From Haloarcula rubripromontorii (lineage in GTDB: Archaea; Halobacteriota; Halobacteria; Halobacteriales; Haloarculaceae): a DNA stretch of 64,000 nucleotides. The translations under genes were made by a program, and so were the position numbers. Positions 41,284 to 46,663 of this stretch are shown piece by piece. A model generated the notes under the pieces. That model saw only the letters and a list, made by a program, of their open reading frames with translations. It did not search any database and was not told the DNA's origin. Each line of letters starts with the position of its first letter. The first letter of the stretch is position 1. Location: NCBI RefSeq assembly GCF_001280425.1, contig NZ_LIUF01000003.1, positions 372,001 through 436,000 on the forward strand, read 5' to 3'.

Positions 41284-42504
41284 TCAGCGGCCCCGGCCGC
41301 GCCGGACGCCCTGACGCGTCCAGCAGATGACCGTGAGTATCGCCATAGCGACGCCCGCCTGCGTGAGCGAGAACCCGGGGCCTCGGGCCGCGGTCGTTTC
41401 CCGGTCGTCGCCGTCAGTTCCGGAGACGGATTGGGTTTCGACTGTGAGCGATCCCGCGGTCTTGCCGTTGACCCGAACGGTTCCATTGACCGCCTCGAAC
41501 TCAGTCTCGACGACAGTTTCTTCTCTGGGATTGAGCGCCACCCGGTCCGTTGTCACCGGTTCGCCGTCGACCGTCACAGTCAGTGTCTCGTTGACCGGCC
41601 GCGAGCGAGTGTTCGTTACTGTCGTTCGCACAGTCGTATTGAACCCGGCCCGGACCCAGTCAGCCGACAGTGACGCATCCGAAATCCGGACATCGGCGCT
41701 GCCCTGCCCGGCGGGTGTGGGTGCCCCATCGGTGACCGATTCAGTTTCCATCCCGAACCCGACGGTTCCGTTCTCGCCAGGGGTCGTGTTGTCAGCAGGC
41801 GCACCGCCGCCCGCCGTTTCGTTCTGTGTCATCGCGTTCTCCCCGTCGTCTGAGGCATTCGAGCTATCGGAACTGTCGTCTGGATTGTCCGAATCATCGG
41901 TGTCAGAATCGCCTCTGTCGGCACCGCCATCTGTGTCGGTTTGCGTCTGGCTTCCGTTCTCGGTTGGTTCTTCCGTTTCGGTCGGTTCCTCTGTCTCGTC
42001 AGTATCTTCGGTTTCAGTCGGCTCCTCGGTTTCAGTCGGCTCCTCGGTTTCAGGGGGTTCTTCAGTCTCGGTCGGTTCCGCCGTTTCTGTGGGTTCCTCG
42101 GTTTCAGTCGGCTCCTCTGTCTCGGTCGCTTCCTCCGTCTCCGCAGTTTCTGTAGGTGCTTCCGTTTCAGTCGATTCTTCAGTCTCCCCTGTTTCCGTTG
42201 GCTCTTCGGTTTCACTCGGCTCCTCAGTTGCTTCAGTTTCCGTCGGTTCCTCGGTCTCAGGTTCTTCCTCAGTCTGCTCACCGTCATCCGGTGTGTCTGT
42301 CCCGTTGACCTGCCCGAGCAGTGTCCCTGTGTGGCGCTCGAGGCCAGATGAAACGGTCATTCCGGGTGTGCTTGCTGTTGCGTCTGACCCGCTCTGTAGA
42401 CTGGCGTCGGAAGCAACTACGCTGCCGACGGCGAAGGCGGACGCGAGTACAGCGATGGTAAAAACGACAGCGACGGCAGTGTAGAGTGTTCGTGCCTCGC
42501 TCAT
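41284..42504 (-). CDS. PGF-CTERM surface protein with a TETEEP-type stalk
   Basis: A 406-residue exported protein. A membrane-type signal (about residues 8-32) precedes an acidic Thr/Glu/Pro stretch of about 130 residues built on TETEEP repeats, likely O-glycosylated or an extended stalk. Then come an Asp/Ser-rich part, a C-terminal CARDB-like module (about 280-375; DASLSADWVRAGFNTTVR), and a tripartite sorting tail: GPGF, a hydrophobic helix and a basic RRGRGR end. That tail is a PGF-CTERM signal, processed by archaeosortase A and lipidated. The C-terminal module is closely shared with the neighbouring 1349-residue protein. Confidence 0.9.
   Translation of the reverse strand: MSEARTLYTAVAVVFTIAVLASAFAVGSVVASDASLQSGSDATASTPGMTVSSGLERHTGTLLGQVNGTDTPDDGEQTEEEPETEEPTETEATEEPSETEEPTETGETEESTETEAPTETAETEEATETEEPTETEEPTETAEPTETEEPPETEEPTETEEPTETEDTDETEEPTETEEPTENGSQTQTDTDGGADRGDSDTDDSDNPDDSSDSSNASDDGENAMTQNETAGGGAPADNTTPGENGTVGFGMETESVTDGAPTPAGQGSADVRISDASLSADWVRAGFNTTVRTTVTNTRSRPVNETLTVTVDGEPVTTDRVALNPREETVVETEFEAVNGTVRVNGKTAGSLTVETQSVSGTDGDDRETTAARGPGFSLTQAGVAMAILTVICWTRQGVRRGRGR
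41980..42245 (-). repeat. TETEEP low-complexity repeat in coding sequence
   Basis: Imperfect 6-residue (18-nt) units of Thr-Glu-Thr-Glu-Glu-Pro, with variants carrying Ser, Ala, Gly or Asp, repeated roughly twenty times. The DNA is a GGTTCCTCGGTTTCAGTC-like array on the plus strand, prone to slippage. Confidence 0.75.
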
Positions 42505-42613
42505 ACAGGGGCGTACGTGAGTGGCGAATTAGTTACGGAGCAGCCAAACCGTCGGTAAGGTCGTCCTTCCAACGCTGAAACAGGAGCGACAGGCGGCCTC
42601 TGTCGACGACGCC

Positions 42614-45600: not shown

Positions 45601-46663
45601 CAGTGTTGACCTGAGTGTCGATGAGCCCCGCGTCTCGAATCTGGATCGAGGCCGCATCTGCAACTTCAACGGTCCCGACCGACTCGCCGTTTATTATCAG
45701 GTCATACGCCCCTTCGCTGTCGAAGGTCGGCGAGAACACCAGTGTCTCCGTCTCGCCGTTCTCAATTTCGACGGTCCGGGTGGCGATTTCAGAGCCGTCA
45801 GCCTGCAGCACGACCGTCTCCGTCGCCGAGCCGTCGCCGTCTCTGGGGTTTGCCATCCGAACGGTGAGTTCGACTGGCTCGTCTGTCACTGTCGATTCAT
45901 CACGTAGCCGTGAGTACTCGACAGTGAACCGCGTCGGCTCTTCGATGGTGAGTGTCGGGTTCGAGTCCCCACCGGCTCGCAGTTCGTATTCCCCGGCAGG
46001 CAGGTCGTCAAGGGATCCGGTGTTCAGCGTCCACGAAGTCGTTTCCGTCTCGCCGCCACCGACCGCAACATCGAGTTCGTTGACAATCTGTGACTCCCCC
46101 GTGTCCGTGTCCTGCAGCGCCGGTGTAATGGTCAGCTCGCCGGCTTTCCCGCCGGTGTTTTTCAGCGTGTGGGTTACTTCGACATGTTCACCTCGCGTAA
46201 CGGAAGTTCTGTTGACGGTCGTCTCGGTGACCGTGATGTTCGGTGGGTCAACGACGGTTACCGTCCCGGCTGAGACACCGTCGACGGCGATATCGTACTC
46301 GCCTGTGTCTTCAAGCGTGATTGGGACGCTCTCCGTCGTCTGCTGGCCGCCACCAACCGCAACGTCGACCTGGTCGACTTGCTCGTCGTCTGCCGTGATC
46401 GTTACCTGTTTGGTGCCGTCGACGTCTCCGGTGTTTTCAGCCGTGAACTCCACCAGAAACTCCATGTCGGAGACGACTGAGAACGGCGCGTCGTGCGTTC
46501 CTGAACTGTTGGTTTTTGTCGCTGACGCGTCGGTCACTTCGATAGTCGCTGTCTCGTGATTGGCTCCCGCCGCGACACCCGGCCCGAACATCGGGGCCGT
46601 CGACACCGCAACCACAGCCAGTAGCGTCATCGCTGTTAGCCACAGGCCCGTAATCTTACCCAT
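42614..46663 (-). CDS. Large PGF-CTERM surface protein with ten CARDB-like repeats
   Basis: A 1349-residue exported protein. A signal segment (about 5-33) is followed by ten adhesion-type CARDB-like modules of about 90 residues each, recognisable by an ATF start, a VTATVxNxGDQ strand and a final GxYxxxVDGxxxGTVTV pattern. A run of 15 glycines, encoded near 43630-43677, leads to a PGF-pre-PGF domain (about 1060-1200) and then to an eleventh CARDB-like module (DASLMADWVRAGFNTSVR), followed by GPGF, a hydrophobic helix and RLRRRV, the PGF-CTERM tail. This is a classic archaeosortase-anchored surface protein; the role is likely adhesion or cell-surface scaffolding. Confidence 0.92.
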   Translation of the reverse strand: MGKITGLWLTAMTLLAVVAVSTAPMFGPGVAAGANHETATIEVTDASATKTNSSGTHDAPFSVVSDMEFLVEFTAENTGDVDGTKQVTITADDEQVDQVDVAVGGGQQTTESVPITLEDTGEYDIAVDGVSAGTVTVVDPPNITVTETTVNRTSVTRGEHVEVTHTLKNTGGKAGELTITPALQDTDTGESQIVNELDVAVGGGETETTSWTLNTGSLDDLPAGEYELRAGGDSNPTLTIEEPTRFTVEYSRLRDESTVTDEPVELTVRMANPRDGDGSATETVVLQADGSEIATRTVEIENGETETLVFSPTFDSEGAYDLIINGESVGTVEVADAASIQIRDAGLIDTQVNTDTDTGGIGTREPELWVMVANTGGQAGTITLPIEVGGTQVGQESMTVPAGETVNETLRYRLEGAVDEGDHEVTVGDVTAGTLTVGTPDIQVTDASWNRTTITRGDAAELTVMARNDGTVTAGQEFRVETETEVVDAVSFDLAPGDSGTDTYVRTFNEPGTYQFTVGSETQTVTVEQPATFAVSDRALNTTSVSEGESVTVTATVTNTGDQPGTYEIPLTVADERANAAELQLEPGESTPVSFTEPFTAVGTYPIDLDGERVGTVRVSEAATFETTAVDLNRTDVVTGEPIAVTATVRNEGDQTGTADVRLQGDGTTIDTQSVTLDGGGETTVTFVQSFSDAGTRAIAVDNQFGARVTVSEPATFEISNAAVSSESVIQGGAVELTATVTNTGGQAGSVTGNFSVANSVVESREVTLAGGEATEITYEHVFNNSGNYVVSINGERAGTVTVKEPAAFDTAAVDLNRTSARTGEPIEVTATVVNDGDQTGTSPVRLQTNADIVDTTNVTLPGGQQTEVTFVYVFESGGEYDVAVNGDSGGNISVTQPATFEVRDAKLSSQSAETGESVDVTATVANVGTESGNYTAALAESNQTLKSKTIGPIAGGETATVSFSISFDDEGNRSLSIGNTPTETLAVEAEASSNGGGGGGGGGGGGGGFDFDDEPEETDDGGGAEAPAISQSQIDNGVTVRVTADAANSTVSQSLNRSGPSETAPAFTLSALSLNVTNASDGFNTTLLGPHATPNDMAAVQEDGVRGYVTVTSGANASAVSRATYTLRLNESALPNNGSMDAVRVYQYHNESWSQLPSTVNGTNRSIRATSPNLATIAIVSPVANASTQTTVPSSANASTPTPAELTVADASLMADWVRAGFNTSVRATVENPSDKTVEQALTVTVDGDSVASRTVRLTAGEQTTVTIEFEAVDGPVAVNGVSAGDLRVGSTTAQGTGGSGTADAGESGGGAEPAAETVTASGPGFTVQLVAVVLALITGFARLRRRV

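What the first reader, a model, noticed from the sequence alone, without database searches (positions are those of the whole stretch)
41284..46663. Two adjacent PGF-CTERM surface proteins share a near-duplicate C-terminal module
The 406- and 1349-residue proteins have the same order at the C-terminus: a CARDB-like module, then GPGF, helix, basic tail. The modules align over about 83 residues with roughly half identical, including ten in a row (ADWVRAGFNT). The rest differ wholly: a TETEEP stalk in one, ten CARDB repeats and a PGF-pre-PGF domain in the other. This looks like module duplication followed by fusion of different exteriors to a common anchor unit, and suggests the module has a sorting or anchoring role of its own beyond the PGF tail. 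They could work as a surface pair.
Basis: partly seen in the sequence, partly recalled or inferred. Interest (0 to 1): 0.6.

Follow-up and report, generated by a model that had tools for sequence, protein, structure and literature searches.

The report
Shared membrane-proximal Ig domain on surface proteins
Two neighbouring salt-loving archaeal genes encode very different cell-surface proteins that carry the same small immunoglobulin-like domain next to their membrane anchor; it is an old, conserved duplication that looks like a stem, not a sorting signal, so it is fairly ordinary.

Summary
p1 (406 aa) and p2 (1349 aa) share an 86-residue C-terminal module (56% identical, including ADWVRAGFNT) that no other CARDB in the genome approaches (84 bits versus 22). 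The genus is Haloarcula. The pair is syntenic (elp3-p2-p1-oxidoreductase-rqcH) in 13 of 26 Haloarcula genomes scanned; two more have p2 only. In a module tree, p1 and p2 copies form two sister groups, so the duplication predates those species. There is no sign of recent gene conversion. p2's order (CARDB repeats, PGF-pre-PGF-like domain, module, anchor) recurs outside the genus, so p2 looks ancestral and p1 derived. CARDB number (6-11) and stalk length (181-391 aa) vary, while the module is constant. It folds like CARDB (PF1109, 3idu).

The proposed sorting role is not supported. All 46 modules are the last folded domain, 42-62 residues from the C-terminus and before a hydrophobic helix. But 7 of 18 outside the paired Haloarcula loci have no PGF, although the five genomes checked (six of the seven) carry archaeosortase A. 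Nine bona fide PGF-CTERM proteins in this genome lack the module. Most likely it is a membrane-proximal stem or spacer domain: an undescribed C-terminal CARDB subfamily, a modest novelty.

The parts
42614..46663 (-). p2: 1349-aa surface protein (signal sequence, ten CARDB repeats, Gly run, PGF-pre-PGF-like domain, DW-type CARDB module, GPGF tail)
   Evidence: ORF; domains; orthologues and synteny
43700..46459 (-). ten CARDB repeats of p2 (aa 69-988); 6 to 11 copies in orthologues
   Evidence: Pfam PF07705 6e-44, 10 stretches; repeat profile
43637..43678 (-). glycine run of p2, linker before the pre-module domain
   Evidence: translation
43106..43606 (-). pre-module domain of p2 (aa 1020-1186), divergent relative of PGF-pre-PGF (TIGR04213)
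   Evidence: TIGR04213 12.5-13.8 bits, cut-off 28; own profile finds it directly before the module in outlying Haloarcula and in Halorubrum
42788..43051 (-). DW-type CARDB module of p2 (aa 1205-1292); ADWVRAGFNT at 42989-43018
42617..42694 (-). C-terminal GPGF, hydrophobic helix and basic end of p2 (aa 1324-1349)
   Evidence: translation; genome-specific tail profile 16.2 bits vs shuffled maximum 6.0; below the TIGR04126 cut-off
41284..42504 (-). p1: 406-aa surface protein (signal sequence, acidic Thr-rich stalk, DW-type CARDB module, GPGF tail)
   Evidence: ORF; orthologues and synteny; module dN/dS about 0.24
41695..42399 (-). acidic Thr-rich TETEEP stalk and low-complexity linker of p1; 181-391 aa in orthologues
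41437..41700 (-). DW-type CARDB module of p1 (aa 269-356); ADWVRAGFNT at 41635-41664
   Evidence: predicted beta-sandwich, block pLDDT 93-97 over model residues 11-90; PF1109 CARDB Z 9.4
41287..41382 (-). C-terminal GPGF, hydrophobic helix and basic end of p1 (aa 375-406)
   Evidence: translation; genome-specific tail profile 11.4 bits vs shuffled maximum 6.0; no TIGR04126 match

Best explanation
p1 and p2 are two secreted surface proteins held to the outer face of the cell membrane by their C-terminal GPGF-helix-basic tails, most likely after cleavage and lipidation by archaeosortase A. The shared module is a distinct C-terminal subfamily of the CARDB (E-set Ig-like) fold with a conserved DW motif. 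It serves as a membrane-proximal stem or spacer domain between anchor and exterior. The pair arose once, before the paired Haloarcula species diverged, when the C-terminal part of p2 (module plus anchor) was duplicated downstream and joined to an acidic Thr-rich stalk. The exteriors then changed freely by gain and loss of CARDB repeats and stalk units, while the stem was kept by purifying selection. Shown here: family, fold prediction, position, duplication, conservation. Inferred: surface location, processing by ArtA, and the mechanical (stem) role.
For: Position: 46 of 46 DW modules are the last folded domain, 42-62 aa from the C-terminus and followed by a hydrophobic helix. Sister clades p1/p2. 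Syntenic pair in 13 of 26 genus genomes. p2 architecture (pre-module domain directly before the module) recurs in outlying Haloarcula and Halorubrum. Variable repeats and stalk beside a constant module. dN/dS 0.24 (p1) and 0.12 (p2) in the module. CARDB fold, PF1109 3idu Z 9.4, rmsd 2.4 over 85 residues. ArtA present in the genome, 342 bits, and tails resembling the genome's own PGF-CTERM tails. ArtA substrates are defined by PGF, hydrophobic domain and basic end, in diverse proteins (PMC7157517).
Against: The tails do not reach the curated PGF-CTERM models, so ArtA processing is not certain. A conserved tryptophan-containing motif seems more than a passive spacer would need. No expression or localisation data were available.
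Confidence: 0.78

Rival explanations
1. The module is a sorting determinant that works together with the PGF tail (recognised by ArtA or its partners).
For: Strict C-terminal position (46 of 46); PGF present in all 28 modules at the paired Haloarcula locus and 11 of 18 others; strong conservation of the DW motif.
Against: 7 of 18 modules outside the paired loci have non-PGF anchors; the five genomes searched, which hold six of these seven modules, have ArtA and other PGF-CTERM proteins. Nine PGF-CTERM proteins of this genome lack any such module. Literature defines ArtA substrates by the tripartite tail alone (PMC7157517).
Confidence: 0.07
2. The module is a pairing or docking interface: p1 and p2 associate side by side at the membrane through their common module, or both bind a common partner such as the S-layer underside.
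For: Adjacent same-strand genes kept together in 13 genomes; DW motif and flanks conserved above the rest of the domain, and not shared by p2's own CARDB repeats.
Against: p2 persists without p1 in two genomes, and single DW-module proteins occur in outlying Haloarcula and other genera, so a p1 partner is not obligatory. No interaction evidence. Conservation of the motif may be structural.
Confidence: 0.13
3. Recent gene conversion or homogenisation between neighbours makes the modules look alike.
For: The best-matching 62 nt has lower synonymous difference than the rest of the module.
Against: Within-genome p1/p2 identity in that stretch is hardly higher than between genomes (0.77 vs 0.75); p1 and p2 copies are each one group in the tree.
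Confidence: 0.02

Closest known systems
CARDB domain (Pfam PF07705), PF1109 CARDB structure 3idu/2kl6
   Same: Same beta-sandwich fold (Z 9.4, rmsd 2.4, 85 residues); p2 repeats are clear CARDB.
   Different: The DW modules form a separate, strictly C-terminal group; p1's copy is missed by Pfam.
PGF-CTERM / archaeosortase A substrates (TIGR04126, PF18204; ArtA TIGR04125)
   Same: GPGF, hydrophobic helix, basic end; ArtA in genome.
   Different: Tails score below curated cut-offs; the module itself is not part of the signal.
PGF-pre-PGF domain (TIGR04213)
   Same: A domain of similar length and position lies before the module in p2, with weak profile similarity.
   Different: Below the cut-off (12.5-13.8 vs 28 bits), and a CARDB module sits between it and the tail.
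VARTIG loci of Thermococcales (PMC8416519)
   Same: A large upstream multi-Ig (CARDB-related) surface protein and smaller downstream proteins that align only with its C-terminal Ig domain and putative sorting end.
   Different: There the C-terminal Ig domain is hypervariable by recombination; here it is the conserved part and the exteriors vary. That paper searched other archaea, found no close VARTIG analogue, and noted tandem Ig-type genes with a conserved C-terminal Ig domain, with Methanosarcinales examples.

Membership tests
CARDB (PF07705) | Pfam profile match over the curated cut-off for the shared module | tested here: inconclusive
   p2 whole protein 148.8 bits from its repeats; the p1 module has no Pfam match; a profile from p2's repeats scores the p2 module 28.5 bits and does not find the p1 module
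CARDB (PF07705) | E-set/Ig-like beta-sandwich like the solved CARDB domain | tested here: met
   AlphaFold2 model of the p1 module; PF1109 CARDB 3idu_B Z 9.4, 2kl6 Z 9.1
PGF-CTERM (TIGR04126 / PF18204) | Score over the curated cut-off | tested here: not met
   TIGR04126: p2 6.2 bits, p1 none, cut-off 24.5; PF18204 finds six other places, not these
PGF-CTERM (TIGR04126 / PF18204) | Tripartite end: PGF, hydrophobic stretch, basic residues, at the C-terminus | tested here: met
   GPGF at p1 aa 375 and p2 aa 1324, then helix and Arg-rich end; genome-own tail profile 11.4 and 16.2 bits vs shuffled maximum 6.0
Archaeosortase A substrate | ArtA encoded in the same genome | tested here: met
   TIGR04125 341.7 bits at C5:157593-158459
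Archaeosortase A substrate | ArtA-dependent cleavage and lipid attachment | not testable with these tools
   needs an artA deletion and mass spectrometry or mobility shift
PGF-pre-PGF (TIGR04213) | Score over the curated cut-off | tested here: not met
   12.5-13.8 bits, cut-off 28; relatives L056/L057 14.5-14.7 bits
VARTIG locus | Large Ig protein followed by smaller proteins sharing its C-terminal Ig domain | tested here: met
   p2 upstream of p1, which shares only module and tail
VARTIG locus | Hypervariable C-terminal Ig domain of the large protein | tested here: not met
   p2 modules 81-97% identical to the window's in all genomes with p2 but one (66% in L052), dN/dS about 0.12

The most novel reading that the evidence does not exclude
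The DW-type CARDB is a dedicated membrane-proximal docking module of haloarchaeal surface proteins. Its conserved motif would bind a common partner at the membrane-S-layer interface (or another DW module), so that proteins with unrelated exteriors are placed together whatever their anchor type.
Probability: 0.12. Interest if true: 0.55.

Novelty: new member of a known kind. Interest (0 to 1): 0.27.

Why it matters
It defines a small C-terminal CARDB subfamily that no curated model searched here names. It also gives a clean case in which the membrane-proximal stem of archaeal surface proteins is conserved while the exterior is swapped and resized. It shows that PGF tails which annotation models miss can be recognised from a genome's own tail consensus. 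If the DW motif proved to bind something, it would point to a common docking site under the S-layer.

Tried and rejected
Sorting role of the module: rejected on non-PGF tails in ArtA-bearing genomes and on module-free PGF-CTERM proteins. Recent duplication or gene conversion: rejected on within- vs between-genome DNA identity and the tree. ArtA loss as the reason for non-PGF tails: rejected, ArtA is present in the five genomes tested; the seventh tail (Halobellus) was not tested. The first module alignment A1 was too diverse for the contig scan, so a narrower one (A2) was used. PDB sequence search with p2 gave only low-complexity glycine-run matches. The plasmid search gave only matches below 60% identity, mainly over the CARDB repeats. 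The fold of the pre-module domain gave no convincing match. No paper was found that holds both 'Haloarcula' and 'CARDB domain'.

Full report
Observation. Both ORFs lie exactly where stated. The modules span p1 aa 269-356 and p2 aa 1205-1292, 56% identical over 86 residues including ADWVRAGFNT. Searching the whole assembly with the p1 module returns itself, then the p2 module (84 bits, E 1.7e-23), then CARDB repeats of p2 at 22 and 17 bits. The similarity is therefore well above that between ordinary CARDB domains. At DNA level only about 62 nt are near-identical.

What the pieces are. p2 is a chain of ten CARDB repeats, a glycine run, a domain of about 165 residues weakly like PGF-pre-PGF (12.5-13.8 bits, cut-off 28), then the module and tail. 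p1 is a signal sequence, an acidic Thr-rich stalk, the module and tail. AlphaFold2 gives the p1 module a confident beta-sandwich (block pLDDT 93-97 over residues 11-90), then a disordered linker and a low-confidence terminal helix. The sandwich matches the solved CARDB domain of PF1109 (3idu Z 9.4, rmsd 2.4 over 85 residues) as well as the C-terminal Ig-like domains of GH3 enzymes. The tails have GPGF, a hydrophobic stretch and basic residues, but score below the curated PGF-CTERM models. A profile built from seven PGF-CTERM tails of the same genome scores them 11.4 and 16.2 bits, against a maximum of 6.0 for shuffled tails. The genome encodes ArtA.

Distribution. Named hits place the genus as Haloarcula. 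Of 26 genus genomes in the 392-genome scan, 13 have both genes in the order elp3-p2-p1-oxidoreductase-rqcH. G198 and G157 have p2 at the locus and no p1. Five outlying species have one 719-813 aa module protein at another place. The other six have no strong hit. Where the locus was inspected in outlying species, other genes or short gaps lie between elp3 and the oxidoreductase. Outside the genus, the strong module family (80 bits or more) is scattered in other haloarchaea including Halorubrum, Halobellus and an uncultured lineage, with a score gap to generic CARDB (about 65 bits and below).

History. In the module tree, p1 copies form one group and p2 copies one group, and together they form one group at 99/94 (short alignment, so deeper forks are uncertain). 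The pre-module domain occurs before the module in p2, in outlying Haloarcula, in Halorubrum and in several genomes of another family (f4), but never in p1. So the p2 arrangement is the likely older state and p1 the derivative. Within-genome p1/p2 DNA identity hardly exceeds between-genome identity (0.77 vs 0.75 in the best stretch, 0.57 vs 0.57 in the rest), so the likeness is old and conserved, not recently copied. Synonymous difference in the best stretch is somewhat lower than in the rest, which leaves room for codon constraint or very old exchange. Exteriors change: 6 to 11 CARDB repeats in p2, 181 to 391 residues before the module in p1. The module is under purifying selection (dN/dS about 0.24 and 0.12).

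Test of the sorting idea. The second holds: 46 of 46 modules sit 42-62 residues from the end with a hydrophobic helix after them. The first fails: 28 of 28 at the paired locus but only 11 of 18 elsewhere have PGF. The five genomes checked, which hold six of the seven non-PGF cases, have ArtA and other PGF-CTERM proteins. Conversely, nine PGF-CTERM proteins of this genome over the TIGR04126 cut-off carry neither module, CARDB repeat nor pre-module domain in the stretch examined (up to 529 residues). The literature describes ArtA substrates by the tripartite tail in otherwise diverse proteins (PMC7157517). The module goes with being the last domain before a membrane anchor, whatever the anchor. 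A stem role explains this best (inference).

Known context. The closest published arrangement is the VARTIG module of Thermococcales, where smaller downstream proteins align with the C-terminal Ig domain and putative sorting end of a large Ig protein; there that domain is hypervariable (PMC8416519). The same paper reports tandem Ig-type surface genes with a conserved or homogenised C-terminal Ig domain. The finding is thus a new, well-defined example of a known kind, with a DW-marked CARDB subfamily that the curated libraries searched here do not name.

Limits. Only haloarchaeal genomes of one order were sampled. The scan scored about the best 13 candidates per genome, so a weak internal copy could have been missed. 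No expression, localisation or processing data exist here.

Noticed in passing
G000:C5:153969-154052 and 157281-157364 (L175, L176): Two near-duplicate large PGF-CTERM proteins (open frames 927 and 984 aa; 419 identities over the stretch of about 529 residues seen, same tail) lie in tandem just upstream of archaeosortase A (C5:157593-158459); possibly duplicated S-layer glycoproteins.
   Followed up: partly
L011 (G000:C4:245636-248869): Another protein of this genome has CARDB, a weak pre-module-like domain (20.7 bits), CARDB and a non-PGF membrane anchor: the same order without a PGF tail.
   Followed up: partly
L157 (G319) 2621-4920: The rqcH homologue is split over two overlapping open frames, a likely frameshift or assembly error.
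   Followed up: no
L076, L078, L133, L139, L140: A family of about 376-415 aa proteins with a C-terminal CARDB and a conserved non-PGF end (AALAPP...FLFLA..ANRRWA).
   Followed up: no
window 41327-42484 (+): A 385-aa open frame runs antisense across almost all of p1, probably a by-product of the low-complexity stalk and high GC.
   Followed up: no
window 41287-41382 and 42617-42694, and L083-L089: GPGF tails of the paired proteins are missed by TIGR04126 and PF18204, so counts of PGF-CTERM proteins from these models are probably too low in Haloarcula.
   Followed up: partly
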